64,000 nt of DNA from Siphonodentalium dalli. Lineage: Eukaryota > Mollusca > Scaphopoda > Gadilida > Siphonodentaliidae. The stretch is from the NCBI GenBank assembly GCA_032622095.1, contig CP136061.1, positions 50,289,797 through 50,353,796 of the forward strand, read 5' to 3'. Positions within the stretch are counted from its first letter, which is position 1. Each line of letters starts with the position of its first letter. A program made the position numbers and the translations under genes. Positions 7,767 through 56,500 of the stretch are shown here, in pieces. Below the pieces are notes generated by a model. That model was not told the origin of the DNA. It ran no database searches and saw nothing but the letters and a program-made list of their open reading frames with translations.

Positions 7767-7769
7767 TTG

Positions 7770-9716: not shown

Positions 9717-10487
9717 TCACATGAAAAAACTAGAGCTTTATGCCTTTTTAACAAATAAAAATCCTTAACAGAAGCTTAAAATTCCAGACATTTACCTTGT
9801 TGGCTGAGACACTTCACAACTGTATACGACAGTATTGCGCGCTCGAGCTGCCGACGGAAAATATAGTCCCCCCAATTTGCCTCTTTGTTTTTGTATATTT
9901 TTGGTTATTGCGACGAAGTTGGACAATAATTTAACTTTAATGAACAAAGCAATCATTTTGCATTGTCTGGTGTTGTTGACATGTGCGGCATTACGAAATA
10001 GTAGTAATCCGCCTGATTCAATTTAAATTCATTTGTTGGCGAGCTGCCAAGTTGGTGGAAAGCTCGCACTTATTCGCCACTAGTGAGAAATGAGAAATAA
10101 TCTTATTAATGATATAATAGGGGTTTCATGTGATATAAATAAATACTTAATCATAGGGGTGATTATATATTGTTAATATCTAATCCCAACCGCAGGGGAC
10201 ACACGTGCAGGCTCATTCTATTAAAACAAGATATATTAAGATTGATCTTAGAATTAATACAGGATTAATATTGACTAAGAAGAAGAGTTTTTTAAAGATT
10301 TATCTTAAATAACGGAGATATTTTAAGATTTTAAAGATTTTTATATTATCTAAACATTTCCTAAGTGAACTACTCATCAAAGAGTATTTAGTAAATATGA
10401 GGGGTTAATGTGGCACTCGAGTGGTCAACAATTCCGCCATCGAAAAAATTATCAGGTCCTGGCAGCAGGAAATGGTAAAAGAACAAG
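9717..10487. other. No feature recognised
   Basis: AT-rich, no coding or repeat signal of note. Confidence 0.5.
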
Positions 10488-10866
10488 TGCACCACACCGC
10501 GCATCGCCTGCACCACACGCGTATCGACTGCACCACACCGCGTATCGCATGCACCACACCGCTTATCGCCTGCACCACACCGCGCATCGCCTGCACCACA
10601 CCTCGAATCGCCTGCACCACACCGCGTATCGCCTGCACCACACCGCGTAGCGCATGCACCAAACCGTGTATCGCATGCACCACACCGCGTATCGCCTGCA
10701 CCACACCGTATATCGCCTTCATCACACCGCGTATCGCCTGCACCACACAGCGTATCGCATGCACCACACCGCGTATTGCTTGCACCACATCGTATATCGC
10801 CTGCACATACCGCGTATCGCCTGCATCACACCGCGTATCGCCTGCACCACACCGCGAATCGCCTTT
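10488..10866. repeat. 21-bp minisatellite, about 18 copies
   Basis: The unit CACCACACCGCGTATCGCCT + G has variants (GCATG, CGCATC, GTATATC). It stands out for its CpG content (CGCG) in an AT-rich region. The open frames are a by-product of the period. Confidence 0.95.
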
Positions 10867-11565
10867 TTACTTTTCGCAAGAGTCTCAATTATGTCTTATG
10901 TATCATGAATTGAGTAAAATTAAAGTGAAGATCTGAACTAAAAATGACCAAAAACAACACATTTCACACTAAATAACATATTTTGTATGAAATGTCCAAT
11001 TGACAATTGTAACTTTTTAGCAAAGTTGGTTAGTGAGAGACTCCCTGCATGGCAGCATAGATACTCACTACAGACGCACAGACATATGGATAGAACGATT
11101 ACGAACACAGCGACACTTGGCACGGCAAACCACCAGATCCTGCAGAAGAATCGGGGAGAAACATTTATGTCAGGTTACGTCAACTGTAAGGCAGTGTTCT
11201 GTCCCCATGCTACCTCAGACCAAGATAAGATACGATAAGTTTTAATGACAAAACATCATTGTAAGGACAGTATGCATACATAATAACATTTAAATTTAAA
11301 TTGTGTAGCGAACAGTATAATGATCTATAATACTAAATGTCATTAATTAGATATGACATTTTTGTCCAGAACGGCTTGTTATCGAACTATGTGAATATCG
11401 CTTCAATTTGGCCTTAAACCGAGTAATATCATTTACGGCATCACCAAACCTATTCATATGGTTGTATGACATGCCGTAAATCTACTTCATTGCTAAATAT
11501 TGTGTAGATATCGTTTTTTGTGCCGCCGCTCATTTTAAAGAGTTGTAAGTTACTGAGGTATATAT
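10867..11565. other. No feature recognised
   Basis: Mixed-composition sequence with short overlapping frames on both strands at about 10990-11240 and no family motif. Confidence 0.5.
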
Positions 11566-30007: not shown

Positions 30008-30057
30008 TTGTGTAACATAACGAGAGAGAGAGAAGTGCGGGAGTCGTACCGAAAGTT

Positions 30058-30104
30058 GGCAGCACCCGAAATACCAAGCCGGTCACCCATCCAAGGACCG
30101 ATCG

Positions 30105-30185
<81 letters not shown>

Positions 30186-30240
30186 GCTCGACATTGCTCA
30201 ACTTCGGTGATCACACAAAGCGTCTGACGGCTGTGACCAA
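30058..30240 (-). pseudogene. 5S rRNA-derived sequence interrupted by (GA)n
   Basis: Reading the minus strand: CGTCAGACGC, TGATCACCGAAGTTGAGCAA, TGTCGAGC, then a CT microsatellite, then GGTCCTTGGATGGGTGACCG and GGTATTTCGGGTGCTGCC. This is the order of 5S rRNA (GATCTCGGAAGCTAAGCA...ACTTGGATGGGAGACCG...AATACCGGGTGCTG), including the A-box and C-box regions of its internal promoter. The microsatellite splits it, so it is not a functional 5S gene. It could be a pseudogene or the head of a 5S-derived (SINE3-type) SINE. Confidence 0.7.
30108..30181. repeat. (GA)n microsatellite
   Basis: An uninterrupted GA run of about 73 bp lying inside the 5S-derived sequence. Confidence 0.97.
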
Positions 30241-31177: not shown

Positions 31178-31630
31178 AGGTTACACTGGTGTAAATATTT
31201 CCCATAGGCTTCAATGTTAACGTTTGTTGATCTGCATCAGAGGTCAAATGGAAACTGTTCAAACTGCCTTCGGATTATGTGAGCTTGACATCTGTGGAAA
31301 CTTTCCCAATAAAAAAATCAACACCGTCTAGCAGGGAATCCACTTCAAATTTTCGTTTTTTCATGACTAGGGTCAGTTCCGCACTAAAAAAATATTGTCA
31401 TTTTTTCAATCACACTTAAAATTTCTAAACAGCCACAACAGACTTCACCTTTAATGAATGGGCCTCTTGGCAAATGAAGTTTGTGGGAGAATGATTCCTT
31501 GAATTTTTGTCAACAGTTTACATTTAATTCATGCAACCAATCACAGCCCAGAGTGTTTTAACTGTGAAACTCTATACTCCTCCCGCAACCGCAGGGGGAG
31601 CTGCCTATAGTATTTACACCAGTGTAACCT
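31178..31630. mobile_element. 453-bp MITE with GGTTACACTGG termini, copy 1
   Basis: Inverted ends AGGTTACACTGGTGTAAATA and TATTTACACCAGTGTAACCT. No coding capacity. By eye, base-for-base identical to 32531-32983. The left flank is CA and the right flank TA. Confidence 0.9.
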
Positions 31631-32530
31631 AAAGCGATAGCCCGCCTTTTCGCGGAATAATTGTAACTCCCTACATTTCTTCAGAATTGCCCATCAATGG
31701 AAAAAATGTGTTCAAAAACAATATCACCCCTATGGTTCTTTATTTATCACACACAATTTAACCCCACCCCCTTTAACAAATTATTCATCAAAAAGGCACA
31801 ATTTTCCACCACCAGTCATGTTCAGGCCCCATTTTCACTCAGTTTTAGGGGTCTGGTGTTGCAAACTTGGATCAGCTATGGAAGACTGTACAATATTCTT
31901 TCCATGAGAGAACTTCTGGTGATGTGAGGTCATTGAGTCCAGATCTGATCAGCTGAGCATCAAGCGCATGACTTTATCAGCACATTGAAGAATAAAATAT
32001 GACATTTTCAGGTCTGCAAGGGTGATCCAAGATAACTGGATGTGGGTGTATATTGAATTAGTTGAATAAAGATATGCTCTCTTTGAATTGCTGAAGCATT
32101 TTCTTAAATGTGTCCAAGTTTTAGTGCTATTAACCTTCAAATGACCATACCCACCAGTGGAAATGACACACTTTTATGATATATATCTGTATATCACTGG
32201 CTATAAAATCCAAAATACTTGTTAGATTAGGTTCTTATAACAATTGATATATGTGTCGTTGACATGCTCATGTTATGGGTCATTTGCATTATCATGTGAC
32301 TATTACCACCTTGAATTTTTTTGAAAATACCTTGAAAAATTGTCATTTTTTATGAAAAATCTTACTATTTTTTTGGCTGATGTAAGTGAAAGAAGACATC
32401 AGCAGCAAGAATAGCCACACCAAGCATGAGATATTCATTGGACTGAAAGACCAGGCTCTGTAAAATGCATTAAAATGCTTTAAAGTGACTCCCAGGAATC
32501 AAAAATGATAAAAAGCTATTTTTTCCCTTT
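31631..32530. other. 900-bp spacer between two identical MITEs
   Basis: Unique AT-rich sequence with no recognisable coding region; open frames of about 76 and 63 codons are unremarkable. Confidence 0.6.
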
Positions 32531-32983
32531 AGGTTACACTGGTGTAAATATTTCCCATAGGCTTCAATGTTAACGTTTGTTGATCTGCATCAGAGGTCAA
32601 ATGGAAACTGTTCAAACTGCCTTCGGATTATGTGAGCTTGACATCTGTGGAAACTTTCCCAATAAAAAAATCAACACCGTCTAGCAGGGAATCCACTTCA
32701 AATTTTCGTTTTTTCATGACTAGGGTCAGTTCCGCACTAAAAAAATATTGTCATTTTTTCAATCACACTTAAAATTTCTAAACAGCCACAACAGACTTCA
32801 CCTTTAATGAATGGGCCTCTTGGCAAATGAAGTTTGTGGGAGAATGATTCCTTGAATTTTTGTCAACAGTTTACATTTAATTCATGCAACCAATCACAGC
32901 CCAGAGTGTTTTAACTGTGAAACTCTATACTCCTCCCGCAACCGCAGGGGGAGCTGCCTATAGTATTTACACCAGTGTAACCT
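32531..32983. mobile_element. 453-bp MITE with GGTTACACTGG termini, copy 2
   Basis: Same orientation and sequence as copy 1. Taking the element as GGTTACAC...GTGTAACC, it is flanked by TA on both sides. Confidence 0.92.
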
Positions 32984-33034
32984 ACATGGCTTCCCTGATT
33001 ATGTTGTGATTGGGTGAGATTGGCGTAATAATGG

Positions 33035-33402: not shown

Positions 33403-33984
33403 AGGGGTACTGTACGCCATTTTCATTAAATTTCCGGTGACAATAACGATCTAATATCGATAATATATAGAAACATAAGTAATTTGAGTCGAAGATGTAT
33501 TCTGTAAACGCTCAGGTTAATAGGCTATCTTAAAATTTAATAATTTAAAAGTTAATAATTTGATATAAATTGAATTTATGACTGGAGCCATAAAATGGCG
33601 TCAATTAAATTACGAATAACCGTAATCAAACAAAGTACTTGAGGGATACTGGCTTGTTAAACCGATCGCACACACGATCGCTTAAACATATTATGATGAT
33701 ACGGGGAGAACACTCAAGCCACTCACTGACTAGCGACAATACAATAACTTAAATGATTATATGGGACTAGTATGCCAATATAACTTTTATTTGATTCATT
33801 TGGTTGAAAACTGTACAAATATTACTCGACAACGACAATTTGTATTTTTGCATTCCGGTAAATTTGTCATCCGTAACACTACTTCGTACTCAACAGACTT
33901 TCAAATAATGAAAAAATTGTTACCTTATTCTCCGACTCGGAGACTATAGAAACCAACAACAACATTTGGCGTACAGTACCCCTT
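33402..33984. mobile_element. MITE with AAGGGGTACTG termini (583 bp, TA-flanked)
   Basis: AAGGGGTACTGTACGCCA and TGGCGTACAGTACCCCTT are inverse ends, flanked by TA at 33400-33401 and 33985-33986. A 62-codon frame inside has no recognisable motif. Confidence 0.8.
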
Positions 33985-34326
33985 TAAACTGTGAAGTTAG
34001 TATTCAGTCAGTATGCCAAATGGAGGAATGTAGCATTCTACTACATCGTAAAAAATCTGAAGCAATTCGACCGTACCGCTCCATAGAAAAGATCATCTGA
34101 ACTATGCTAAATTGTAAATATTTACTTCTCGATTCGGGACGCAACTATCAGCGATAAAGTAACAAAATCGATTTCAACATCGAGAGTCACTGAATTTAAT
34201 AAATATATAATAATGGCGGTGTGTGTTGTCATTTTGGATTGAAGATTTGTAAAAATAACTACTTTGAGCAAGATTATCCTCCATTTGTATTTGATCACCA
34301 TACCGGAGTGTTTCACATCACTTTAA

Positions 34327-34743
34327 TAACTCTCCAATAACAAGATTTCACATTTCGAAACCACTGTCATGTAAACATTACTGTTACAGTCAGAGATTAA
34401 AACCATTGTTATGTAAACATTACTGTTACAGTCAGAGATTAAAACCATTGTTATGTAAACATTACTGTTACAGTCAGAGATTAAAACCATTGTTATGTAA
34501 ACATTACTGTTACAGTCAGAGATTAAAACCATTGTTATGTAAACATCACTGTTACAGTCAGAGATTAAAACCATTGTTATGTAAACATTACTGTTACAGC
34601 AGCACTACTGATCAATGTCCAACATTGAGAGTAAAATATTTAAACTTACTACGCAATTAGCAATGTTTGTTGACAAATCACTGTAACAGTTTTGTTTATA
34701 TAACAATGATTTCACGCAAAATTGTGTTATTGGAGAACTTTCA
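34327..34743. mobile_element. MITE with CTCTCCAATAA termini and an expanded arm
   Basis: TAACTCTCCAATAACAAGAT and its inverse ATTGTGTTATTGGAGAA delimit it. Both arms hold AACCATTGTTATGTAAAC / GTTTATATAACAATG, so it is the same family as 7770-8064. Confidence 0.7.
34354..34600. repeat. 42-bp tandem repeat inside a MITE arm, about 6 copies
   Basis: GATTAAAACCATTGTTATGT + AAACATTACTGTTACAGTCA + GA is repeated with one C/T difference. Same length as the large satellite monomer but unrelated in sequence. Confidence 0.95.
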
Positions 34744-34874
34744 AATACTTATAAGAATTAAGAACAATGCTTATCTATTTCTTAATGTTCTTTCTGGTAG
34801 TGATGTTTTTACAGACTTAACATATTTCTTGCACATTTACCCACAACAATAGGCCTTGTGTCCCTTTAAGAATC

Positions 34875-35297
34875 AAGCTTGACGTTAGTGTGCCTGTCAT
34901 TTGCAGAATGAGGTCCCCAGAGGGTGAATTTGATGACGCTATCCCATACAGCGGGCTAACATAACCAAATTCACCCTCTTGGGACCTCATTCTGCATGGC
35001 CTCATCTACTTTGGGGGAGATTGAAGTTCCCAAATGGTGAATATTGTGATGTACACCCATTTGGAACCTTGATTATGCAATGTGTTATCTGCCAATTTTG
35101 GGATATAGATAAACTAAACTAAAAAAGAAATAGAATCTATGTGAAGAAGTTTCTTTTGAAATTTTATAAGAAAGAAACTTTCCAGAGAAGATGAGGCCTA
35201 AGGTTCCCAGAGTGTGAATTTAGTGATGCTAGCCCACTATGCGGGATAGCGTCACTAAATTCACCCTCTGTGGATCTCATTCTGCAAAATCAGGCTT
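34875..35297. mobile_element. GAGGTCC-family foldback MITE at the satellite border
   Basis: AAGCTTGACGTTAGTGTGCC, GCAGAATGAGGTCCCCAGAG, the middle with CAAATGGTGAATATTGTGAT, the right arm GGGATAGCGTCACTAAATTC, ending TCAGGCTT. It ends 36 bp before the 42-bp satellite starts. Confidence 0.8.
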
Positions 35298-35333
35298 GTT
35301 AAGAATGAAAACATACTAGTGGACACTGGCAAT

Positions 35334-38300
35334 TTATTTTATACATGACATGAATGACACCAGTTATGAGAGCCATTATTTAATGATAGGAATGACACCG
35401 GTTATGAGAGCCATTATTTGATACATGACAGGAAAGACACCAGTTATGAGAGCCATTATTTAATGATAGGAATGACACCGGTTATGAGAGCCATTATTTT
35501 ATACATGACAGGAATGACACCGGTTATGAGAGCCAATATTTTAAACATGGCAAGAATGACACCAGTTATGAGAGCTATTATTTAATACATGACAGGAATG
35601 ACACCGGTTATGAGAGCCATTATTTAATACATGACAGGAATGACACTGGTTATGAGCCATTATTTATACATGACAGGAATGACACCGGTTATGAGAGCCA
35701 TTATTTTATACATGATAGGAATGACACCGGTTATGAGAGCCATTATTTAATACATGACAGGAATGATACCGGTTATGAGAGCCATTATTTTATACATGAT
35801 AGGAATGACACCGGTTATGAGAGCCATTATTTTATACATGATAGGAATGACACCGGTTATGAGAGCCATTATTTTATACATGACAGGAATGACACAGGTT
35901 ATGAGAGCTATTATTTATACATGACAGGAATGACACCGGTTATGAGAGCCATTATTTTATACATGACAGGAATGACACCGGTTATGAGAGCCATTATTTT
36001 ATACATGACAGGAATGACACAGGTTATGAGAGCTATTATTTATACATGACAGGAATGACACCGGTTATGAGAGCCATTATTTTATACATGACAGGAATGA
36101 CACCGGTTATGAGAGCCATTATTTAATACATGACAGGAATGACACCGGTTATGAGAGCCATTATTTAATGATAGGAAAGACACCGGTTATGAGAGCCATT
36201 ATTTAATACATGACAGGAATAACACCGGTTATGAGAGCCATTATTTTATACATGATAGGAATGACACCGGTTATGAGAGCCATTATTTTATACATGACAG
36301 GAATGACACCGGTTATGAGAGCCATTATTTAATACATGATAAGAATAACACCGGTTATGAGAGCCATTATTTTATACATGACAGGAATGACACCGGTTAT
36401 GAGAGCCATTATTTAATGATAGGAAAGACACCGGTTATGAGAGCCATTATTTAATACATGACACGAATAACACCGGTCATGAGAGCCATTATTTTATACA
36501 TGATAGGAATGACACCGGTTATGAGAGCCATTATTTTATACATGACAGGAATGACACCGGTTATGAGAGCCATTATTTAATACATGATAGGAATAACACC
36601 GGTTATGAGAGCCATTATTTTATACATGACAGGAATGACACCGGTTATGAGAGCCATTATTTAATACATGACAGGAATAACACCGGTTATGAGAGCCATT
36701 ATTTTATACATGATAGGAATAACACCGGTTATGAGAGCCATTATTTTATACATGACAGGAATGACACCGGTTATGAGAGCCATTATTTAATACATGACAG
36801 GAATGACACCGGTTATGAGAGCCATTATTTAATGATAGGAAAGACACCGGTTATGAGAGCCATTATTTAATACATGACAGGAATAACACCGGTTATGAGA
36901 GCCATTATTTTATACATGATAGGAATGACACCGGTTATGAGAGCCATTATTTTATACATGACAGGAATGACACCGGTTATGAGAGCCATTATTTAATACA
37001 TGATAGGAATAACACCGGTTATGAGAGCCATTATTTTATACATGACAGGAATGACACCGGTTATGAGAGCCATTATTTTATACATAACAGGAATGACACC
37101 GGTTATGAGAGCCATTATTTAATACATGATAGGAATGACACCGGTTATGAGAGCCATTATTTTATACATGACAGGAATGACACCGGTTATGAGAGCTATT
37201 ATTTTATACATGACAGGAATGACACCGGTTATGAGAGCCATTATTTTATACATGACAGGAATGACACCGGTTATGAGAGCCATTATTTAATACATGACAG
37301 GAATGACACAGGTTATGAGAGCTATTATTTAATACATGACAGGAATGACACCGGTTATGAGAGCCATTATTTTATACATGACAGGAATGACACCGGTTAT
37401 GAGAGCCATTATTTTATACATGACAGGAATGACACCGGTTATGAGAGCCATTATTTAATACATGACAGGAATGACACAGGTTATGAGAGCTATTATTTTA
37501 TACATGACAGGAATGACACCGATTATGAGAGCCATTATTTAATGATAGGAATGACACCGGTTATGAGAGCTATTATTTTATACGACAGGAATGACACCGG
37601 TTATGAGAGCCATTATTTAATACATGACAGGAATGACACCGGTTATGAGAGCCATTATTTTATACATGACAGGAATGACACCGGTTATGAGAGCTATTAT
37701 TTTATACATGACAGGAATAACACCGGTTATGAGAGCCATTATTTTATACATGACAGGAATGACACCGGTTATGAGAGCTATTATTTTATACATGACAGGA
37801 ATAACACCGGTTATGAGAGCCATTATTTTATACATGATAGGAATGACACAGGTTATGAGAGCTATTATTTAATACATGACAGGAATGACACCGGTTATGA
37901 GAGCCATTATTTAATACATGACAGGAATGACACCGGTTATGAGAGCCATTATTTTATACATGACAGGAATGACACCGGTTATGAGAGCTATTATTTTATA
38001 CATGACAGGAATAACACCGGTTATGAGAGCCATTATTTTATACATGACAGGAATGACACCGGTTATGAGAGCTATTATTTTATACATGACAGGAATAACA
38101 CCGGTTATGAGAGCCATTATTTTATACATGATAGGAATGACACAGGTTATGAGAGCTATTATTTAATACATGACAGGAATGACACCGGTTATGAGAGCCA
38201 TTATTTAATACATGACAGGAATGACACCGGTTATGAGAGCCATTATTTTATACATGACAGGAATGACACCGGTTATGAGAGCTATTATTTTATACATGAC

Positions 38301-41300
38301 AGGAATAACACCGGTTATGAGAGCCATTATTTTATACATGACAGGAATGACACCGGTTATGAGAGCTATTATTTTATACATGACAGGAATAACACCGGTT
38401 ATGAGAGCCATTATTTTATACATGATAGGAATGACACAGGTTATGAGAGCTATTATTTTATACATGATAGGAATGACAACGGTTATGAGAGCTATTATTT
38501 TATACGACAGGAATGACACCGGTTATGAGAGCCATTATTTTATACATGACAGGAATGACACCGGTTATGAGAGCCATTATTTAATGATAGGAAAGACACC
38601 GGTTATGAGAGCCATTATTTAATACATGACAGGAATGACACCGGTTATGAGAGCCATTATTTTATACATGACAGGAATGACACCGGTTATGAGAGCTATT
38701 ATTTTATACATGATAGGAATGACACCGGTTACGAGAGCCATTATTTAATGATAGGAATGACACCGGTTATGAGAGCCATTATTTAATGATAGGAATGACA
38801 CCGGTTATGAGAGCCATTATTTAATACATGACAGGAATGACACCGGTTATGAGAGCCATTATTTTATACATGACAGGAATAACACCGGTTATGAGAGCCA
38901 TTATTTTATACATGATAGGAATGACACCGGTTATGAGAGCCATTATTTTATACATGACAGGAATGACACCGGTTATGAGAGCCATTATTTAATACATGAT
39001 AGGAATGACACCGGTTATGAGAGCCATTATTTTATACATGACAGGAATGACACCGGTTATGAGAGCCATTATTTTATACATGATAGGAATGACACCGGTT
39101 ATGAGAGCTATTATTTTATACGACAGGAATGACACCGGTTATGAGAGCCATTATTTAATACATGACAGGAATGACACCGGTTATGAGAGCCATTATTTTA
39201 TACATGACAGGAATGACACCAGTTATGAGAGCCATTATTTTATACATGATAGGAATGACACCGGTTATGAGAGCCATTATTTTATACATGACAGGAATGA
39301 CACCGGTTATGAGAGCCATTATTTAATACATGACAGGAATAACACCGGTTATGAGAGCCATTATTTTATACATGACAGGAATGACACCGGTTATGAGAGC
39401 CATTATTTAATGATAGGAAAGACACCGGTTATGAGAGCCATTATTTAATACATGACAGGAATAACACCGGTCATGAGAGCCATTATTTTATACATGATAG
39501 GAATGACACCGGTTATGAGAGCCATTATTTTATACATGACAGGAATGACACCGGTTATGAGAGCCATTATTTAATACATGATAGGAATAACACCGGTTAT
39601 GAGAGCCATTATTTTATACATGACAGGAATGACACCGGTTATGAGAGCCATTATTTAATACATGACAGGAATAACACCGGTTATGAGAGCCATTATTTTA
39701 TACATGATAGGAATAACACCGGTTATGAGAGCCATTATTTTATACATGACAGGAATGACACCGGTTATGAGAGCCATTATTTAATACATGACAGGAATGA
39801 CACCGGTTATGAGAGCCATTATTTAATGATAGGAAAGACACCGGTTATGAGAGCCATTATTTAATACATGACAGGAATAACACCGGTTATGAGAGCCATT
39901 ATTTTATACATGATAGGAATGACACCGGTTATGAGAGCCATTATTTTATACATGACAGGAATGACACCGGTTATGAGAGCCATTATTTAATACATGATAG
40001 GAATAACACCGGTTATGAGAGCCATTATTTTATACATGACAGGAATGACACCGGTTATGAGAGCCATTATTTTATACATAACAGGAATGACACCGGTTAT
40101 GAGAGCCATTATTTAATACATGATAGGAATGACACCGGTTATGAGAGCCATTATTTTATACATGACAGGAATGACACCGGTTATGAGAGCTATTATTTTA
40201 TACATGACAGGAATGACACCGGTTATGAGAGCCATTATTTTATACATGACAGGAATGACACCGGTTATGAGAGCCATTATTTAATACATGACAGGAATGA
40301 CACAGGTTATGAGAGCTATTATTTTATACATGACAGGAATGACACCGATTATGAGAGCCATTATTTAATGATAGGAATGACACCGGTTATGAGAGCTATT
40401 ATTTTATACGACAGGAATGACACCGGTTATGAGAGCCATTATTTTATACGACATGAATGACACCGGTTATGAGAGCTATTATTTTATACGACATGAATGA
40501 CACCGGTTATGAGAGCCATTATTTTATACATGACAGGAATGACACCGGTTATGAGAGCTATTATTTAATACATGACAGGAATGACACCGGTTATGAGAGC
40601 CATTATTTTATACATGACAGGAATGACACCGGTTATGAGAGCCATTATTTTATACATGACAGGAATGACACCGGTTATGAGAGCCATTATTTAATACATG
40701 ACAGGAATGACACAGGTTATGAGAGCTATTATTTTATACATGACAGGAATGACACCGATTATGAGAGCCATTATTTAATGATAGGAATGACACCGGTTAT
40801 GAGAGCTATTATTTTATACGACAGGAATGACACCGGTTATGAGAGCCATTATTTAATACATGACAGGAATGACACCGGTTATGAGAGCCATTATTTTATA
40901 CATGACAGGAATGACACCGGTTATGAGAGCTATTATTTTATACATGACAGGAATAACACCGGTTATGAGAGCCATTATTTTATACATGACAGGAATGACA
41001 CCGGTTATGAGAGCTATTATTTTATACATGACAGGAATAACACCGGTTATGAGAGCCATTATTTTATACATGATAGGAATGACACAGGTTATGAGAGCTA
41101 TTATTTAATACATGACAGGAATGACACCGGTTATGAGAGCCATTATTTAATACATGACAGGAATGACACCGGTTATGAGAGCCATTATTTTATACATGAC
41201 AGGAATGACACCGGTTATGAGAGCTATTATTTTATACATGACAGGAATAACACCGGTTATGAGAGCCATTATTTTATACATGACAGGAATGACACCGGTT

Positions 41301-44300
41301 ATGAGAGCTATTATTTTATACATGACAGGAATAACACCGGTTATGAGAGCCATTATTTTATACATGATAGGAATGACACAGGTTATGAGAGCTATTATTT
41401 AATACATGACAGGAATGACACCGGTTATGAGAGCCATTATTTAATACATGACAGGAATGACACCGGTTATGAGAGCCATTATTTTATACATGACAGGAAT
41501 GACACCGGTTATGAGAGCTATTATTTTATACATGACAGGAATAACACCGGTTATGAGAGCCATTATTTTATACATGACAGGAATGACACCGGTTATGAGA
41601 GCTATTATTTTATACATGACAGGAATAACACCGGTTATGAGAGCCATTATTTTATATATGATAGGAATGACACAGGTTATGAGAGCTATTATTTTATACA
41701 TGATAGGAATGACACCGGTTATGAGAGCTATTATTTTATACGACAGGAATGACACCGGTTATGAGAGCCATTATTTTATACATGACAGGAATGACACCGG
41801 TTATGAGAGCCATTATTTAATGATAGGAAAGACACCGGTTATGAGAGCCATTATTTAATACATGACAGGAATGACACCGGTTATGAGAGCCATTATTTTA
41901 TACATGACAGGAATGACACCGGTTATGAGAGCTATTATTTTATACATGATAGGAATGACACCGGTTACGAGAGCCATTATTTAATGATAGGAATGACACC
42001 GGTTATGAGAGCCATTATTTAATGATAGGAATGACACCGGTTATGAGAGCCATTATTTAATACATGACAGGAATGACACCGGTTATGAGAGCCATTATTT
42101 TATACATGACAGGAATAACACCGGTTATGAGAGCCATTATTTTATACATGATAGGAATGACACCGGTTATGAGAGCCATTATTTTATACATGACAGGAAT
42201 GACACCGGTTATGAGAGCCATTATTTAATACATGATAGGAATGACACCGGTTATGAGAGCCATTATTTTATACATGACAGGAATGACACCGGTTATGAGA
42301 GCCATTATTTTATACATGATAGGAATGACACCGGTTATGAGAGCTATTATTTTATACGACAGGAATGACACCGGTTATGAGAGCCATTATTTAATACATG
42401 ACAGGAATGACACCGGTTATGAGAGCCATTATTTTATACATGACAGGAATGACACCAGTTATGAGAGCTATTATTTTATACATGATAGGAATGACACCGG
42501 TTATGAGAGCCATTATTTTATACATGACAGGAATGACACCAGTTATGAGAGCCATTATTTAATGATAGGAATGACACCGGTTATGAGAGCTATTATTTAA
42601 TACATGACAGGAATGACACAGGTTATGAGAGCCATTATTTTATACATGACAGGAATGACACCGGTTATGAGAGCTATTATTTTATACATGACAGGAATAA
42701 CACCGGTTATGAGAGCCATTATTTTATACATGATAGGAATGACACAGGTTATGAGAGCTATTATTTAATACATGACAGGAATGACACCGGTTATGAGAGC
42801 CATTATTTAATACATGACAGGAATGACACCGGTTATGAGAGCCATTATTTTATACATGACAGGAATGACACCGGTTATGAGAGCTATTATTTTATACATG
42901 ACAGGAATAACACCGGTTATGAGAGCCATTATTTTATACATGACAGGAATGACACCGGTTATGAGAGCTATTATTTTATACATGACAGGAATAACACCGG
43001 TTATGAGAGCCATTATTTTATACATGATAGGAATGACACAGGTTATGAGAGCTATTATTTTATACATGATAGGAATGACACCGGTTATGAGAGCTATTAT
43101 TTTATACGACAGGAATGACACCGGTTATGAGAGCCATTATTTTATACATGACAGGAATGACACCGGTTATGAGAGCCATTATTTAATGATAGGAAAGACA
43201 CCGGTTATGAGAGCCATTATTTAATACATGACAGGAATGACACCGGTTATGAGAGCCATTATTTTATACATGACAGGAATGACACCGGTTATGAGAGCTA
43301 TTATTTTATACATGATAGGAATGACACCGGTTACGAGAGCCATTATTTAATGATAGGAATGACACCGGTTATGAGAGCCATTATTTAATGATAGGAATGA
43401 CACCGGTTATGAGAGCCATTATTTAATACATGACAGGAATGACACCGGTTATGAGAGCCATTATTTTATACATGACAGGAATAACACCGGTTATGAGAGC
43501 CATTATTTTATACATGATAGGAATGACACCGGTTATGAGAGCCATTATTTTATACATGACAGGAATGACACCGGTTATGAGAGCCATTATTTAATACATG
43601 ATAGGAATGACACCGGTTATGAGAGCCATTATTTTATACATGACAGGAATGACACCGGTTATGAGAGCCATTATTTTATACATGATAGGAATGACACCGG
43701 TTATGAGAGCTATTATTTTATATGACAGGAATGACACCGGTTATGAGAGCCATTATTTAATACATGACAGGAATGACACCGGTTATGAGAGCCATTATTT
43801 TATACATGACAGGAATGACACCAGTTATGAGAGCTATTATTTTATACATGATAGGAATGACACCGGTTATGAGAGCCATTATTTTATACATGACAGGAAT
43901 GACACCAGTTATGAGAGCCATTATTTAATGATAGGAATGACACCGGTTATGAGAGCTATTATTTAATACATGACAGGAATGACACAGGTTATGAGAGCTA
44001 TTATTTTATACGACAGGAATGACACCAGTTATGAGAGCTATTATTTAATGATAGGAATGACACCGGTTATGAGAGCTATTATTTAATACATGACAGGAAT
44101 GACACCGGTTATGAGAGCTATTATTTAATACATGACAGGAATGACACCGGTTATGAGAGCTATTATTTAATACATGACAGGAATGACACCGGTTATGAGA
44201 GCCATTATTTAATGATAGGAATGACACCGGTTATGAGAGCCATTATTTAATACATCACAGGAATGACACCGGTTATGAGAGCTATTATTTTATACATGAT

Positions 44301-47300
44301 AGGAATGACACCGGTTACGAGAGCCATTATTTAATGATAGGAATGACACCGGTTATGAGAGCCATTATTTAATGATAGGAATGACACCGGTTATGAGAGC
44401 CATTATTTAATACATGACAGGAATGACACCGGTTATGAGAGCCATTATTTTATACATGACAGGAATAACACCGGTTATGAGAGCCATTATTTAATACATG
44501 ACAGGAATGACACCGGTTATGAGAGCCATTATTTAATACATGACAGGAATGACACCGGTTATGAGAGCCATTATTTTATACATGATAGGAATGACACCGG
44601 TTATGAGAGCCATTATTTAATACATGACAGGAATGACACCGGTTATGAGAGCCATTATTTAATACATGACAGGAATGACACCGGTTATGAGAGCTATTAT
44701 TTAATACATGACAGGAATGACACCGGTTATGAGAGCCATTATTTAATGATAGGAATGACACCGGTTATGAGAGCCATTATTTAATGATAGGAATGACACC
44801 TGTTATGAGAGCCATTATTTAATACATGACAGGAATGACACCGGTTATGAGAGCTATTATTTTATACATGATAGGAATGACACCGGTTACGAGAGCCATT
44901 ATTTAATGATAGGAATGACACCGGTTATGATAGCCATTATTTAATGATAGGAATGACACCGGTTATGAGAGCCATTATTTAATACATGACAGGAATGACA
45001 CCGGTTATGAGAGCCATTATTTTATACATGACAGGAATAACACCGGTTATGAGAGCCATTATTTAATACATGACAGGAATGACACCGGTTATGAGAGCCA
45101 TTATTTAATACATGACAGGAATGACACCGGTTATGAGAGCCATTATTTTATACATGATAGGAATGACACCGGTTATGAGAGCCATTATTTAATACATGAC
45201 AGGAATGACACCGGTTATGAGAGCCATTATTTAATACATGACAGGAATGACACCGGTTATGAGAGCTATTATTTAATACATGACAGGAATGACACAGGTT
45301 ATGAGAGCCATTATTTAATACATGACAGGAATGACACCGGTTATGAGAGCCATTATTTTATACATGATAGGAATGACACCGGTTATGAGAGCTATTATTT
45401 TATACATGATAGGAATGACACCGGTTATGAGAGCCATTATTTAATACATGACAGGAATGACACCGGTTATGAGAGCCATTATTTTATACATGACAGGAAT
45501 AACACCGGTTATGAGAGCCATTATTTAATACATGACAGGAATGACACCGGTTATGAGAGCCATTATTTAATACATGACAGGAATGACACCGGTTATGAGA
45601 GCCATTATTTTATACATGATAGGAATGACACCGGTTATGAGAGCCATTATTTAATACATGACAGGAATGACACCGGTTATGAGAGCCATTATTTAATACA
45701 TGACAGGAATGACACCGGTTATGAGAGCTATTATTTTATACATGATAGGAATGACACCGGTTATGAGAGCCATTATTTAATACATGACAGGAATGACACC
45801 GGTTATGAGAGCCATTATTTAATACATGATAGGAATGACACCGGTTATGAGAGCCATTATTTAATACATGACAGGAATGACACCGGTTATGAGAGCTATT
45901 ATTTTATACATGATAGGAATGACACCGGTTATGAGAGCCATTATTTAATACATGATAGGAATGACACCGGTTATGAGAGCCATTATTTAATACATGACAG
46001 GAATAACACCGGTTATGAGAGCCATTATTTAATACATGACAGGAATGACACCGGTTATGAGAGCCATTATTTAATACATGACAGGAATGACACCGGTTAT
46101 GAGAGCCATTATTTTATACATGATAGGAATGACACCGGTTATGAGAGCCATTATTTAATACATGACAGGAATGACACCGGTTATGAGAGCCATTATTTAA
46201 TACATGACAGGAATGACACCGGTTATGAGAGCTATTATTTTATACATGATAGGAATGACACCGGTTATGAGAGCCATTATTTAATACATGACAGGAATGA
46301 CACCGGTTATGAGAGCCATTATTTAATACATGATAGGAATGACACCGGTTATGAGAGCCATTATTTAATACATGACAGGAATGACACCGGTTATGAGAGC
46401 TATTTTATACATGATAGGAATGACACCGGTTATGAGAGCCATTATTTAATACATGATAGGAATGACACCGGTTATGAGAGCCATTATTTAATACATGACA
46501 GGAATGACACCGGTTATGAGAGCCATTATTTAATACATGACAGGAATGACACCGGTTATGAGAGCTATTATTTTATACATGATAGGAATGACACCGGTTA
46601 TGAGAGCCATTATTTAATACATGACAGGAATGACACTGGTTATGAGCCATTATTTAATACATGATAGGAATGACACCGGTTATGAGAGCCATTATTTAAT
46701 ACATGACAGGAATGACACCGGTTATGAGAGCTATTATTTAATACATGACAGGAATGACACTGGTTATGAGCCATTATTTATCATGACAGGAATGACACCG
46801 GTTATGAGAGCCATTATTTTATACATGATAGGAATGACACCGGTTATGAGAGCCATTATTTAATACATGACAGGAATGACACCGGTTATGAGAGCCATTA
46901 TTTTATACATGATAGGAATGACACCGGTTATGAGAGCTATTATTTAATACATGACAGGAATGACACTGGTTATGAGAGCCATTATTTTATACATGACAGG
47001 AATGACACTGGTTATGAGAGCTATTATTTTATACATGATAGGAATGACACCGGTTATGAGAGCCATTATTTAATACATGACAGGAATGACACCGGTTATG
47101 AGAGCCATTATTTTATACGACAGGAATGACACCGGTTATGAGAGCCATTATTTTATACATGATAGGAATGACACCGGTTATGAGAGCTATTATTTTATAC
47201 ATGATAGGAATGACACCGGTTATGAGAGCCATTATTTAATACATGACAGGAATGACACCGGTTATGAGAGCCATTATTTTATACATGACAGGAATAACAC

Positions 47301-49347
47301 CGGTTATGAGAGCCATTATTTAATACATGACAGGAATGACACCGGTTATGAGAGCCATTATTTAATACATGACAGGAATGACACCGGTTATGAGAGCCAT
47401 TATTTTATACATGATAGGAATGACACCGGTTATGAGAGCCATTATTTAATACATGACAGGAATGACACTGGTTATGAGAGCCATTATTTTATACGACAGG
47501 AATGACACCGGTTATGAGAGCTATTATTTTATACATGATAGGAATGACACCGGTTATGAGAGCCATTATTTAATACATGACAGGAATGACACCGGTTATG
47601 AGAGCCATTATTTTATACATGATAGGAATGACACCGGTTATGAGAGCTATTATTTTATACATGATAGGAATGACACCGGTTATGAGAGCCATTATTTAAT
47701 ACATGACAGGAATGACACCGGTTATGAGAGCCATTATTTTATACATGATAGGAATGACACCGGTTATGAGAGCTATTATTTATACATGACAGGAATGACA
47801 CTGGTTATGAGAGCTATTATTTATACATGACAGGAATGACACCGGTTATGAGAGCCATTATTTAATACATGACAGGAATGACACCGGTTATGAGAGCCAT
47901 TATTTTATACATGATAGGAATGACACCGGTTATGAGAGCTATTATTTTATACATGATAGGAATGACACCGGTTATGAGAGCCATTATTTTATACGACAGG
48001 AATGACACCGGTTATGAGAGCCATTATTTTATACATGACAGGAATGACACCGATTATGAGAGCCATTATTTTATACGACAGGAATGACACCGGTTATGAG
48101 AGCCATTATTTTATACATGATAGGAATGACACAGGTTATGAGAGCTATTATTTTATACATGATAGGAATGACACCGGTTATGAGAGCCATTATTTTATAC
48201 GACAGGAATGACACCGGTTATGAGAGCCATTATTTTATACATGACAGGAATGACACCGGTTATGAGAGCCATTATTTTATACATGACAGGAATGACACCG
48301 GTTATGAGAGCCATTATTTTATACGACAGGAATGACACCGATTATGAGAGCCATTATTTTATACATGACAGGAATGACACCGATTATGAGAGCCATTATT
48401 TTATACGACAGGAATGACACCGGTTATGAGAGCCATTATTTTATACATGATAGGAATGACACAGGTTATGAGAGCTATTATTTTATACATGATAGGAATG
48501 ACACCGGTTATGAGAGCCATTATTTTATACGACAGGAATGACACCGGTTATGAGAGCCATTATTTTATACATGACAGGAATGACACCGATTATGAGAGCC
48601 ATTATTTTATACGACAGGAATGACACCGGTTATGAGAGCCATTATTTAATACATGACAGGAATGACACCGGTTATGAGAGCCATTATTTTATACATGACA
48701 GGAATGACACCGATTATGAGAGCCATTATTTTATACGACAGGAATGACACCGGTTATGAGAGCCATTATTTTATACATGACAGGAATGACACCGATTATG
48801 AGAGCCATTATTTTATACGACAGGAATGACACCGGTTATGAGAGCCATTATTTTATACATGACAGGAATGACACCAGTTATGAGAGCCATTATTTAATAC
48901 ATGACAGGAATGACACCGGTTATGAGAGCCATTATTTTATACATGACAGGAATAACACCGGTTATGAGAGCCATTATTATATACATGACAGGAATGACAC
49001 TGGTTATGAGAGCCATTATTTTATACATGACAGGAATGACACCGGTTATGAGAGCCATTATTTATACATGACACCGGTTATGAGAGCCATTATTTTATAC
49101 ATGACAGGAATAACACCGGTTATGAGAGCCATTATTTAATACATGACAGGAATGACACCGGTTATGAGAGCCATTATTTTATACATGACAGGAATGACAC
49201 CGGTTATGAGCCATTATTTATACATGACAGGAATGACACCGGTTATGAGAGCCATTATTTTATTATACATGACAGGAATGACACCGGTTACGAGAGCCAT
49301 TATTATATACATGACAGGAATGACACAGGTTATGAGAGCCATTATTC
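35334..49347. repeat. 14-kb satellite array, 42-bp monomer, about 333 copies
   Basis: The monomer contains GACACCGGTTATGAGAGCCA, then TTATTTTATACATGACAGGAAT. Main variants are TTTTATAC/TTTAATAC, GAGAGCC/GAGAGCT, GACAGG/GATAGG, AATGAC/AATAAC, a 38-bp form lacking ACAT (TTAATGATAGG) and a 40-bp form lacking AT (TATACGACAGG). Higher-order structure is present: a 294-bp heptamer repeated three times at 37.62-38.50 kb and again at 40.85-41.73 kb, and larger block shifts of 3236 and 1366 bp. Open frames of up to 431 codons encode only the translated monomer (HDRNDTGYESHYFI) and break wherever 38- or 40-bp forms occur, so it is not treated as coding. The edge monomers are the most degraded. Confidence 0.98.
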
Positions 49348-49909
49348 CCAGCTCCTTCGTTCTGCCTTGACCTTCTATTTTCCAAATCTAGAACGTTTAT
49401 GTCTCCCAATTTATGCACAATGAGCTCCGATGGAGAGCTCTAACAGAGAACTAGCTTGCTTCTAAAGCCGCCCACAAAAAACTAAAATTTGCATAGAGCT
49501 TATGAACCCCGCATAATCATCTCCTTGTCGGTAGAGGCATGCTTCTCATTTGCATATAAGGGGGTATCTGTCACATTGAATTATGACATGTCAGAGTAAG
49601 AGTTATACACTGATATAACCACATACCCTCTGCATTCACACATTAGATTCTGTTAGAATCAGTACAAATTGCGATAGTTACATGAATGTTTCTGACATTT
49701 ATCAGGCAATAACTGAAGTTGACACTTCACAAAAAGTGATGAACCACCTGTTACTTGAATTGCATGTTGTTATTGGGAGACTGTGTTGGAATTTGAACAA
49801 TATGTTACTTACAATTATTGTGGTAGTTTTGAACAGAACAGTTTTTTTCAAAGTATTAATGTTCTATTACAATGTACTGTTATATGATTATAAGAAATGA
49901 CTTGCAGAT
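49348..49909. other. Right flank of the satellite, no supported gene
   Basis: The sequence changes abruptly at CCCAGCTCCTTCG. A 72-codon frame at 49682-49900 is unremarkable. Confidence 0.5.
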
Positions 49910-50001
49910 CGATTGGGGTCATTGGTTTTGACTGACACAGTAATTAAACACACTTTGTTTTATTACTCTACCGGTCAACATCTAATGACCCCAATCGAAT
50001 A
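49910..50001. repeat. Short foldback
   Basis: CGATTGGGGTCATTGG pairs with AATGACCCCAATCGAA around an interior of about 60 bp. Confidence 0.75.
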
Positions 50002-50332
50002 ATTCTTAAATGTATAAATTGTTCGTGTAAAAAATATCCTAAACTTCATACGTGCCCAAAATACAGTTAATTGCGTGAACAGTATATATCATGTATCTAT
50101 ACTTTTTTATATTGTATTATGTTTTCATGCATCAATGTTTGGTTTCAAACAGAGTTGAACCGGAATATATGCCTAAAATTGTGTTATTGGAAAGTGCACA
50201 TGAAACCACCCCACTGAAAAGAACTGTGTCAAGAGGCGTGGTTTGGTTCTCAGCTGAGGACTATTTTTTATACAGAAAGACGTTCATATATATGTCTCAT
50301 TTATCAGTATGAAAGTACTTCATCCTTGTAAA

Positions 50333-50424
50333 TTTCAAACCTATTACTAAGTCAGTTAATGGATTCATGACTGGATATTCAAACCTATTACTAAGTCAGT
50401 TAATGGATTCATGACTGGATATTC
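50333..50424. repeat. 46-bp tandem duplication (two copies)
   Basis: CAAACCTATTACTAAGTCAG + TTAATGGATTCATGACTGGA + TATT is present twice in succession without change. Confidence 0.9.
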
Positions 50425-50460
50425 GGAAACCAGAAGATCTCGCCCTCTGGCCTCAACCGT

Positions 50461-50745
50461 CTGTAAAGTTAGGAAACAGAGCTTACATATTCATGTTTGT
50501 GTTCAGCCAGGGATCGCAGATCTCTGATAGCATGTAAAGTTAGGTAACAGAGCTTACATATTCATGTTTGTGTTCAGTCCAGGGATCGCAGATCTCTGAT
50601 AGCATGTAAAGTTAGGAAAGAGAGCTTACATATTCATGTTTGTGTTCAGTCCAGGGATCGCAGATCTCTGATAGCATGTAAAGTTAGGTAACCGAGCTTA
50701 CCTATTTATGGTTGTGTGGAGTCCCGGGATTGCAGATCTCCACTC
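50461..50745. repeat. 72-bp tandem repeat, four copies
   Basis: TGTAAAGTTAGG starts units at 50461, 50533, 50605 and 50677, each holding CATGTTTGTGTTCAG and GGGATCGCAGATCTC. The last unit is diverged. Confidence 0.9.
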
Positions 50746-51035
50746 TTGATACTGATAGATATCACTTCATTAGTTCATTCACTCATCCGCCACAAATCCT
50801 TCTCAACTACCGCTCAAAGTTTCCAGGTTCACACTTCACTTCCTGTCAACCGTCTGACCCGAAGTGTCATATACACTGTAGCTATTAACACCTTATTTTT
50901 TTCTGAATGTCAAGTGTCTTGTCTGTTAACACTGACTGAATAGTAATGATAAATCTCCATTTCATGTAAGCAAGAGCGGCATCTGTTTTGTTATCTGATA
51001 TGGGTACCTATGACGTTCAGGACTGCAAAAACGTG

Positions 51036-51465
51036 TGCCTGTAATTTGCAAAATGAGGTCCCCAGAGGGTGATCTTAATGATGCTATTCCAGTGGCTACA
51101 TGTAGCATTACCAAATTCGCCCTCTTGGGACCTCATTCTGCTTAAGCCTCATCTTCTGGGAAGTATCAACAATCTCAAATTAACATTGTTTTTATTTACT
51201 TTTTCCCATCCAGGAAGTTTCTTCATCACCTAATTATTAGAAGATAAAATGCATAATTGAAGTGACTAATGGGTGGACATCACCAACACTAACTGGGGAA
51301 CTTTAATCTGATCCTAGTTCTCCCATAGCAGTTGAGGACTCAGCAGAATGAGGTTCCCAGAGGGTGAATTTGGTGATACTAGCCTGCTGTGCAGGATAGC
51401 GTCACTAAATTCACTCTGAGGACCTCATTCTGCAAATGACAGACACACTATTTGCAGTCTTGATG
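51036..51465. mobile_element. GAGGTCC-family foldback MITE
   Basis: GTGCCTGTAATTTGCAAAAT, GAGGTCCCCAGAGGGTGAT, inverted middle section (AACTAACTGGGGAACTTTAA), and the end CTGCAAATGACAGACACAC. The middle is inverted relative to some copies, as expected from recombination between foldback arms. Confidence 0.8.
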
Positions 51466-53375: not shown

Positions 53376-53504
53376 TTATTCCTCATCTGACGTGTCACTG
53401 TCCGCGGATGTTGTCCTCGCTTTCTTCATAGACTGTAGAGCTTTCTCTCTGAGTTTTTTCTCTAACTCCAAGTTTTCTCCTTCACCCCCAGCACCATCAG
53501 AAAC
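53376..53504 (-). CDS. SRRM1: SRRM1 terminal coding exon (42 codons plus stop)
   Basis: The acceptor is CTTCACAG|GTTTCT at 53505-53506, preceded by a T-rich tract. The exon reads VSDGAGGEGENLELEKKL, then REKALQSMKKARTTSADS, then DTSDEE and TAA at 53376-53378. The LEKxLREKALxSMxKA core matches the conserved extreme C-terminus of SRRM1 (human: LEKHLREKALRSMRKA). The acidic DTSDEE tail differs from the vertebrate end and is probably lineage-specific. The stop codon overlaps an AATAAA (53375-53380, minus sense), which is too close to the stop to be the main poly(A) signal. Confidence 0.87.
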   Translation of the reverse strand, partial: VSDGAGGEGENLELEKKLREKALQSMKKARTTSADSDTSDEE

Positions 53505-56500
53505 CTGTGAAGATAGTAAAAAAATTAAATATAGAATATACACATAGTGTTTCTGAATAACAAATTTAATCCATGAATGAGATTGGCGATTTACACCACG
53601 AGCTTCAACGAGTGGTGTAAATCGCCAATCCCATTCGTGGATTAAATTTGTTATTCAGAAACACTATGCATATATTTTGTTTATGCCACGATCTTTACAA
53701 TGCGATGGATAAACACTTTTCCGTTCAAATTGAATGGAGAAAGTTTAATCCACTCTGCGAAGTTTATGCCACGATCTTTACAATGCGATGGATAAACACT
53801 TTTCCGTTCAAATTGTATGGAGAAAGTTTAATCCACTCCGCGAAGTTTAATCAACAGTAGGCACGTTAAATCAACAGGTGTTGATTAAATGTAAAATTTA
53901 AACAGATAGCTTTATTTATATAGTAAGATGGGCGATCGTGGTATAAAGAAGTTTAAAGGCCCACTTAATTTTCGAACCCTCAGATAATTTTATATCAAAT
54001 ATATGCCATATTATATACCATTTGAAAGAGGAAGCTCCAAAACATAGTATTGTCAACTTATTCGGTGTAATAAACTATGAACATGTTTTTGTTCAGATAC
54101 CGACTTGGTGTTCTGGGCTCAGTTTCTTTATTTTCAATGGAAGAGGAATAACTCTATCTTAAGATATAGAGTAATTACCCTTTCATTGAAAGTATATTTT
54201 AAGTTTGAATTCTATTGCATTCTGGGAGCCATAACGGGGGGAAATCTTTCTATGATTTCATCTGTTTTCTATTTCTCTATGGGCATCACTGAGACACAGA
54301 TGTTTCAAATGGTGATGAATTATAGTATTTTAATCATATTTTATGGCATAGAATGTTATTAGAACCATATGTGACCCGCCATATCAAATTCAGTCGTAAG
54401 TCGGGATTTTTTTATCCTGTGCCAATGCATTCTCTTAAATATGCGAGTCGACCATAGGTCGCCTGGCATATATAAGAGAATGCATTGGCCTAACAATTTT
54501 TTATCATTTTTTTAAAATAAATGTTTCTTACAATTTTTAGGACGTAAAATAAAAAACATCCATTACCCTGCAGGGAGCCCCACACATATATAGAAGCATA
54601 TAGAAGAGTGTCATCTGTTCATGTTTGTCTGTGGTTCTGTATGGGTGAAATTATTAAAATTGTTAAAGAATACAAGAAAAAATTATTAAAATTGTAAAAA
54701 ATTGTTAGGCCAATGCATTCTCTTATATATGCGAGGCGACCTATGGTCGACTTGCATATATAAGAGAATGCATTGGCACAGGGTCAAAAAAATCCCGACT
54801 TACGACTGAATTTGATATGGCGGGTCACATATATCAACTTACTATTAAGAACAAATTGGTGACTCATAAATTAAACGGGCCTTTAATTATTTGAGTTTCA
54901 GACAATTTATTTTCTGAATCAATGAGGGAAGGAGGACTTGAATTTTTTATTTTTTGCACATCGTAACCATGGATTATGATAGCTTTCCTTGTCTAGCAAT
55001 AGTCAGAAAATGTAGAAGGAAGCTTGTTATGCATATACTCTCATTTAATCTGATATAAATATTACATTGTCCTACTAGTATATGACATAGGGATTTCCTA
55101 TAATGTTCTAATGCCCCGGACTATTCACAATTTATATTCTTGTCTATAAAGTGACAATTTTCAATATAGCATGTGATCCTAAATTTCCTCCAGTGCCTTT
55201 CAATTGTTCTGGAGTTACAATAAGTACACCAGACTATGATGACCAGCCAATCATTTTCTTCAATGTAGTCATCTACTTGTTCTATATCACTCTATGTATA
55301 AATGATAGTCAATCTTCACACATAACAGAGATATGTCAAGAGTAAAAAATGTTTTTGCAATTAATGCTCAAGACGTATGGGCATGTTGGTAAAAACATAC
55401 CAAAATTAATTTAGAATTTTTTTTTAACAAAATATATATACCCGGTATATTTTTTTTCCTCTCAAAATCTAAAATAGAAATAAAATGTTCATTGTTGGCC
55501 ATTTAATTCAATGCTTTGGTGTCGGAGACTCAAATAATATTTTTGATTTGGCCTTATAGAGCTAGTAACTAACTATACATAAAGAGGGTCTTTCCAATTT
55601 TTGGGTGTTTCTCCATTGTTTCTCCTTATAAAATTGTTTACATACAACTTTATGTCCAGGAAATGAAGATTATTCCCTAAAGATTTCCATTTTCATCAGC
55701 ATTCACCACTTTTAAAAATTGGATTGGGGTACAAACATTTCCATTTTCATGATAAAAACATTTCATCCAGACACTAAATATATGAACATACATCTCCCTT
55801 CTCCTTCTTATGCTTGTGTTTCTTATGTTTCTTATGCTTTTTGTGTTTCTTTTCCTTCTTCTTTTTCTTCTTTTTCTTAGCTTCCTGCTCAGATGAGCTA
55901 TCCTGAAAAAAACAAACAATTGAGCACCAAGCCTGAGTTTAGTTTGTCTGTCATTTGCAGAATGAGGTCCCCAGAGGGTGAATTTAGTGACACTAACCTG
56001 CATCACCAAATTTACCCTCTGTGGACCTCATTCTGCATGGCTGTGACAGAGCTGGAGGACTTCTTCCCGTTGTGTGTGTGTGACGATGGCCGTGGTCTTT
56101 CACAAATAAGTCGAGTTGTTAGTTCAGCTTTTATTTTCTCGAGAAATATTTAGTAATAGCTTTCTTTCAGAATTACACTGAGCCAGTGGAACAGCACCGT
56201 TAGTAGCAGACTAGAAGAGTGGCGAAGCAGGACTGCCAGTCTAAACTTTCGACCGAGCATATATACAAAAAGGGTGTGGGACTTAACTGACCAATCATAA
56301 GTCCCCTCATTATAATAAATTTTAGACATACCAGTTCCAACCATCCTGTGTCAAAGTTGGCACAGAACCTGTCAAAGTAGTCATCTATCTTTGGCAGGCA
56401 GGATAGTTCGAACTTGGTAACAGGGTACTTTATGTCAAGTATTCGTATAATAAACTAATGTGTACCCTGGTGAAGGATGCTGTTCAATCATTCTCACATC

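What the first reader, a model, noticed from the sequence alone, without database searches (positions are those of the whole stretch)
35334..49347. 14-kb higher-order satellite of a 42-bp monomer
About 333 monomers form a nested hierarchy. A 294-bp heptamer (7 x 42) is repeated three times at 37617-38498 and the same triple recurs 3236 bp away. A further block is shifted by 1366 bp. The rare variant GGTTACGAG marks the block copies at 38729, 41965, 43331, 44315 and 44887 (spacings 3236, 1366, 984 and 572). This resembles the build-up of centromeric or heterochromatic higher-order repeats, but with a monomer much shorter than a nucleosome and located about 4 kb from a housekeeping gene.
Basis: seen in the sequence. 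Interest (0 to 1): 0.7.

Follow-up and report, generated by a model that had tools for sequence, protein, structure and literature searches.

The report
Large self-duplicating 42-bp minisatellite array
This is a real 14-kb stretch of about 340 head-to-tail copies of a 42-letter DNA word that grew by repeatedly copying blocks of itself; it looks like an unusually large minisatellite in a genome rich in such repeats, and nothing found here marks it as a centromere.

Summary
The array at 35334-49347 (14,014 bp) splits into 339 units, 271 of them 42 bp, with no N inside. The block duplications exist: a 294-bp heptamer x3, and a 3.0-3.2-kb segment present about 2.4 times, with 6 differences in 2069 bp and one 1110-bp exact match. 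Runs of identical unit types reach 26 units; 30 shuffles gave at most 6. Corrections: GGTTACGAG starts 2 bp before each stated place, and a sixth copy lies at 49286. The centromere-like reading is not supported: the hierarchy is irregular and local, and the array lies about 4 kb from a probable SRRM1 gene end. Tandem repeats cover 14% of the window's remainder, 12% of 200 kb around it and 17% of eight distant 5-kb samples, one with several nested periods. An inverted paralogue of part of the window shows other minisatellites changing copy number: 10 vs 1, 22 vs 43, 18 vs 22. Best explanation: a large non-coding minisatellite expanded by in-register unequal exchange, slippage or repair. Genome-wide abundance stayed unresolved: one search had candidates it could not score; a second query did not complete.

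The parts
35334..49347 (+). 42-bp tandem array, consensus TTATTTTATACATGACAGGAATGACACCGGTTATGAGAGCCA, 339 pieces including a terminal 6-bp fragment
   Evidence: TRF; wrap-around alignment
35334..36160 (+). left edge (first 20 units), almost no block duplication, 4 private unit types
   Evidence: mean longest repeated run 0.6
36179..39327 (+). large unit, copy 1 (borders approximate, from two ungapped diagonals)
   Evidence: offsets 2994 and 3236
39173..42563 (+). large unit, copy 2 (borders approximate; overlaps the end of copy 1 as the diagonals do)
   Evidence: 8 mismatches in 1194 and 6 in 2069 to copy 1
42567..44011 (+). large unit, partial copy 3
   Evidence: 6 mismatches in 1445 to copy 2
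37584..38500 (+). 294-bp heptamer repeated about three times (in copy 1)
40820..41736 (+). 294-bp heptamer repeated about three times (in copy 2)
44257..47781 (+). second zone of shorter duplications (lags such as 376, 462, 504, 572 bp)
48012..48588 (+). third zone: 247-bp exact match, 48012 vs 48342, lag 330 bp
48602..49347 (+). right edge (last 19 pieces), almost no block duplication, 4 private types among 17 full units; holds the sixth GGTTACGAG (49286). Not more diverged from the consensus than the interior
   Evidence: mean run 0.2
34874..35298 (+). dispersed inverted-repeat element Z (MITE-like) with 8-bp direct repeats TTAAGAAT at 34866-34873 and 35299-35306; the array starts 28 bp after the second
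   Evidence: read by eye; family; hAT-like by repeat length is recalled knowledge
51018..51462 (-). second Z element, opposite orientation, direct repeats ATGACGTT / ATGACATT (7 of 8 alike)
   Evidence: read by eye; family
53376..53520 (-). probable last coding exon of SRRM1 (upper border approximate), about 4 kb from the array
   Evidence: translation; weak match (E 1.1) to residues 878-901 of 904 of human SRRM1

Best explanation
A very large, non-coding minisatellite (or small, local satellite-like array) that grew in place from a short segment of about 42 bp. Shown: units differ by a few shared variants and small deletions; blocks from a few units up to about 78 units have been copied within the array at several scales; nearly all copying kept the 42-bp register; the interior is block-duplicated and the two edges are almost not. 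Inferred: the copying is by misaligned recombination or repair between copies (unequal sister-chromatid exchange, replication slippage, synthesis-dependent strand annealing), which gives nested blocks without selection. No cellular function is needed to explain it; effects on neighbouring chromatin or on the nearby gene are untested.
For: Nested near-identical blocks with 0.3-0.7% divergence. Repeated runs far above shuffles. The first 20 and last 19 pieces hold almost no block duplication and somewhat more private unit types: 8 of 37 full units at the edges against 19 of 300 between. Apart from a 32-bp, a 45-bp and the terminal 6-bp piece all units are 38, 40, 41 or 42 bp, so the duplications are in register. 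Copy-number change is seen in the neighbourhood: an inverted relative of window 1028-11524, about 24 kb to its left, has one unit where the window has ten (33-bp array 1545-1875; read from the printed sequence), 43.1 where it has 22.1 (30-bp), and 22.0 where it has 18.0 (21-bp). Tandem repeats cover 14.2% of the window outside the array, 12.0% of 200 kb around it and 16.6% of 40 kb from eight distant places, one of which (L025) shows periods of 48, 95 and 237 bp. Published minisatellite work proposes synthesis-dependent strand annealing and sister-chromatid misalignment as sources of block changes (PMC2599865, passages).
Against: No population or read data show that this array changes length. 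The six smaller arrays tested (those in the window with at least 10 copies of a unit of 15 bp or more) show no block duplication beyond shuffles, so this array is unusual within its window, though they have only 11-41 units. The edges are not more diverged from the consensus than the interior: 1.95 and 1.47 differences per full unit against 1.35-2.70 between, so the classical degenerate-edge sign is missing; an earlier value of 3.79 for the right edge came from counting two incomplete pieces. In-register joins are also what an overlap-based misassembly would give. The single answered genome-wide search had candidates it could not score, so the monomer may be a widespread family.
Confidence: 0.8

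Rival explanations
1. A satellite family carried and spread by a mobile element (as with Helitron-borne satellites of oysters), of which this is one expanded copy. Not fully exclusive of growth by exchange.
For: The flanks are dense in dispersed repeats. The 42-bp x5.8 minisatellite 34358-34599 repeats the subterminal inverted repeat of an element here called Y, so elements here can seed tandem repeats. Oyster satellites are often Helitron-associated (PMC8268682, passages). The genome-wide dimer query had candidates that could not be sent for being too many letters.
Against: The two Z elements have different 8-bp direct repeats, so they are separate insertions and not the ends of one carrier. 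The left junction and 49348-51016 match nothing at E 1e-5 in the 200 kb around the window. The monomer has no hit at E 1e-3 in that 200 kb or in 40 kb of distant samples; outside the array the window holds only chance-like matches of 10-14 bases.
Confidence: 0.13
2. Centromeric or heterochromatic satellite, or a seed of one.
For: Nested duplications as in early higher-order repeats. A 42-bp unit is also given for human satellite 1 (PMC12273238, passages).
Against: Only 14 kb; largest unit about 2.4 copies; within about 4 kb of a probable gene; at 50.3 Mb of a 276.9-Mb contig. The position of the real centromere is unknown, and no gene was identified to the left of the array.
Confidence: 0.04
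3. The block repeats are partly or wholly assembly artefacts.
For: The blocks are long and 99.3-99.7% alike, and in-register joins are what a misassembler would make. The window has one 100-N gap, at 3866-3965, outside the array.
Against: Copies differ by substitutions that do not sort into one simple duplicate pair (three-way comparison) and by a 242-bp change of offset; no gap inside the array; repeats of smaller lags (294, 410, 462, 504, 572 bp) lie well within a long read.
Confidence: 0.08
4. A repetitive protein-coding gene (14-residue repeats).
For: Two forward frames of the consensus are open (by eye); open frames of 150, 324 and 431 aa lie in the array.
Against: 29 units of 38 bp, 29 of 40 bp and 7 of 41 bp shift the frame throughout; a 42-bp unit with one open frame stays open by arithmetic.
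Confidence: 0.01

Closest known systems
Hypervariable minisatellites of animals (for example human MS32, CEB1, MSY1)
   Same: Unit between 9 and 100 bp, variant units in blocks, block changes explained by misaligned strand annealing (definition and mechanism from PMC2599865, passages)
   Different: No length polymorphism shown here; the unit is AT-rich (about 36% G+C) where the paper calls MS32, MS205 and CEB1 GC-rich; larger than most known arrays (recalled)
Human satellite 1 (HSat1A), 42-bp unit
   Same: Same unit length, AT-rich (PMC12273238, passages)
   Different: Not compared by sequence here; HSat1A forms much larger arrays (recalled); here 14 kb near a probable gene
Scattered, mobile-element-linked satellites of oysters
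   Same: Dispersed arrays among mobile elements; a satellite with a 42-bp unit, CarSat51 (by its prefix from Crassostrea ariakensis), is listed (PMC8268682, PMC11136912, passages)
   Different: No carrier element found around this array; the species here is not identified and the oyster 42-bp unit was not compared
Alpha-satellite higher-order repeats
   Same: Blocks of variant monomers copied as a unit
   Different: No unit repeated many times in regular order; unit of 42 bp, not 171 (recalled); a CENP-B box was not looked for

Membership tests
Minisatellite | Head-to-tail array of units of about 9-100 bp | tested here: met
   size range from PMC2599865 (passages)
Minisatellite | Variant units mixed within the array | tested here: met
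   56 distinct sequences among 339 pieces
Minisatellite | Length polymorphism or germline instability | not testable with these tools
   one assembly only; three other arrays of the window differ between paralogous copies
Satellite DNA in the strict sense | Arrays of tens of kilobases or more (criterion of PMC7004042, passages) | tested here: not met
   14 kb here
Satellite DNA in the strict sense | Abundant family in the genome | tested here: inconclusive
   no hits in 200 kb nearby and 40 kb distant; genome-wide query had candidates not scored
Centromeric higher-order repeat | One multi-monomer unit repeated many times in regular order | tested here: not met
   largest unit about 2.4 copies, heptamer about 3 copies, other lags irregular
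Centromeric higher-order repeat | CENP-A chromatin | not testable with these tools
   no ChIP data
Mobile-element-borne satellite | Element ends at fixed places on both sides of the array | tested here: inconclusive
   flanking Z copies are separate insertions by their direct repeats; no second locus of this monomer available to compare

The most novel reading that the evidence does not exclude
The 42-bp unit belongs to a young family present at many places in this 2.2-Gb, 9-contig genome, and this locus is an early stage of higher-order repeat formation beside a gene, so that the birth of a satellite could be followed step by step across copies and individuals.
Probability: 0.12. Interest if true: 0.45.

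Novelty: new member of a known kind. Interest (0 to 1): 0.22.

Why it matters
It is a gap-free assembled record of how a short tandem repeat builds nested blocks, with nearly unduplicated edges and countable duplication steps. The paralogous pair nearby, with one unit on one side and ten on the other, shows a minisatellite next to what may be its single-copy state. Beyond that it matters little: it is a big example of a common process.

Tried and rejected
Rejected: coding repeat (frame broken by 38/40/41-bp units). Rejected: one carrier element framed by the inverted Z copies; their direct repeats differ. Rejected after checking: more diverged array edges; the high value for the right edge came from two incomplete pieces and vanishes without them. 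Tried for an ancestor of the unit: cyclic alignment of the monomer with nine other repeat units of the window (one also in a variant form). The 42-bp unit at 34358-34599 gave p 0.05-0.06 (its variant 0.15) and the 44-bp unit at 50334-50424 p about 0.016 with 1500 shuffles (0 of 150 in a first run); neither convinces after nine comparisons. Tried: exact core pattern in viral contigs and genome contigs, no match, as expected for an animal-like genome; four strings of the unit in the paper library, no paper; Rfam, nothing at gathering scores; Pfam on two open frames, one match; single-strand folding of the dimer, z -1.39 and -1.74, nothing notable. Species not identified.

Literature: PMC8268682, PMC11136912, PMC12273238, PMC2599865, PMC7004042 and PMC8122249 were seen as passages; other papers only in search listings with the start of their abstracts.

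Full report
What is there. The window lies at 50,289,797-50,353,796 of contig C1 (276,873,094 bp) in a genome of 2,226,750,531 bp and 9 contigs. The array runs from 35334 to 49347. TRF scores it at 338.1 copies of 42 bp; aligning it to its own consensus gives 339 pieces, 271 of them 42 bp, 29 of 38, 29 of 40 and 7 of 41. There are 56 distinct sequences, the commonest seen 59 times. The only N run in the window is 3866-3965, outside the array.

Duplication structure. Ungapped comparison finds a 3.0-3.2-kb segment about 2.4 times: 36179-39327, 39173-42563 and part of it at 42567-44011, borders approximate. Differences are 8 in 1194, 6 in 2069, 6 in 1445 and 7 in 1363 bp. The first two copies align on two diagonals, 2994 and 3236, so a net 242 bp were gained or lost between them. 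Inside copies 1 and 2 a 294-bp heptamer stands about three times. Further right, lags of 330, 376, 462, 504 and 572 bp occur. A three-way comparison of 1363 bp has 8 variable places: copies 2 and 3 agree at 3, copies 1 and 2 at 4 (three of them within 22 bp near one end), copies 1 and 3 at 1. So no simple order of events is shown; conversion between copies is one way to get this.

Against chance. With units written as letters, the longest run repeated without overlap is 26 units; 30 shuffles of the unit order reach at most 6. 236 of 339 units lie in repeated runs of four or more; 20 shuffles give at most 26. The first 20 and last 19 pieces have almost none (mean longest run 0.6 and 0.2). I first took the right edge to be more diverged too (3.79 differences to the consensus), but that value came from two incomplete pieces; without them the edges stand at 1.95 and 1.47 against 1.35-2.70 in between. 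So the edges are unduplicated and a little richer in private unit types (8 of 37 full units against 19 of 300), but not more diverged. I also tested six other arrays of the window, those with at least 10 copies of a unit of 15 bp or more: none exceeds its shuffles clearly (best case 25 of 200 shuffles reach the observed run). They are small, 11-41 units, so the test is weak for them.

The heptamer claim and the 3236-bp recurrence hold, with 4 mismatches in the third heptamer. GGTTACGAG occurs six times in the window; five match the stated spacings and start 2 bp earlier than stated, and the sixth is at 49286.

Is the neighbourhood special? Tandem repeats cover 7108 of 49,987 bp of the window outside the array (TRF intervals), 24,040 of 200,000 bp around the window and 6,636 of 40,000 bp in eight samples set at round-number positions on six contigs. 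In sample L025 the periods 31, 48, 79, 95, 172 and 237 bp overlap, which resembles this array; its block structure was not analysed. So complex minisatellites are not rare here. No other array of comparable length was seen: the longest listed in the 200 kb is 2221 bp (the stretches were searched in 10-kb pieces, which can cut an array).

Growth in place. Window 1028-11524 has an inverted relative at 50,254,695-50,266,494 of the contig, in pieces that cover 6547 of 10,497 bp at 85.7-94.1% identity (pieces of 350 bp or more). The 33-bp array at 1545-1875 has ten units; the relative has one, by eye from the printed sequence, and TRF lists no array there. The 30-bp array has 22.1 against 43.1 copies, and the 21-bp array 18.0 against 22.0. 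This shows that minisatellites here change copy number without moving, and is the best independent support for the proposed mechanism. Whether the 33-bp array gained or lost units is not proven.

What remains open. Whether the monomer is a family elsewhere. It has no hit in 200 kb nearby or in 40 kb of distant samples, together about 0.01% of the genome. The only answered genome-wide query reported candidates that were too many letters to send and were not scored; this may mean many loci, or only the array itself. Assembly correctness also remains unproved.

Verdict. A true, unusually large minisatellite with nested duplications, best explained by misaligned exchange and repair. It is a new member of a known kind. 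The centromere comparison is not supported by anything tested.

Noticed in passing
window 1028-11524 and L007/L008 (C1:50254695-50266494): Inverted segmental duplication in pieces, 86-94% identical, in which three minisatellites differ in copy number (10 vs 1, 22 vs 43, 18 vs 22).
   Followed up: partly
window 31178-31631 and 32531-32984: Two 100%-identical 454-bp direct copies of an element with inverted ends (AGGTTACACTGGTGTAAATA, by eye); the first directly adjoins a 17-bp x40 minisatellite. Suggests very recent movement.
   Followed up: no
window 34322-34745: Element Y with inverted ends in which one subterminal repeat is expanded into a 42-bp x5.8 tandem array, 98% alike: a tandem repeat apparently born from a transposon end.
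   Followed up: partly
window 30045-30230: Stretch resembling the reverse complement of 5S rRNA (by eye, recalled) interrupted by a (GA)37 run; Rfam gave no match at gathering score.
   Followed up: no
window 62630-63112: DDE_1 endonuclease open frame (Pfam PF03184, E 6.9e-10); pogo/Tigger-like by recall.
   Followed up: no
window 33404-33987: Element with inverted ends TTAAAGGGGTACTGTACGCC (by eye), inserted into a copy of repeat X; possible TTAA target site.
   Followed up: no
L025 (C3:50000001-50005000) 2939-5000: Another short-unit tandem array with overlapping periods 31, 48, 79, 95, 172 and 237 bp in a sample at a round-number position.
   Followed up: no
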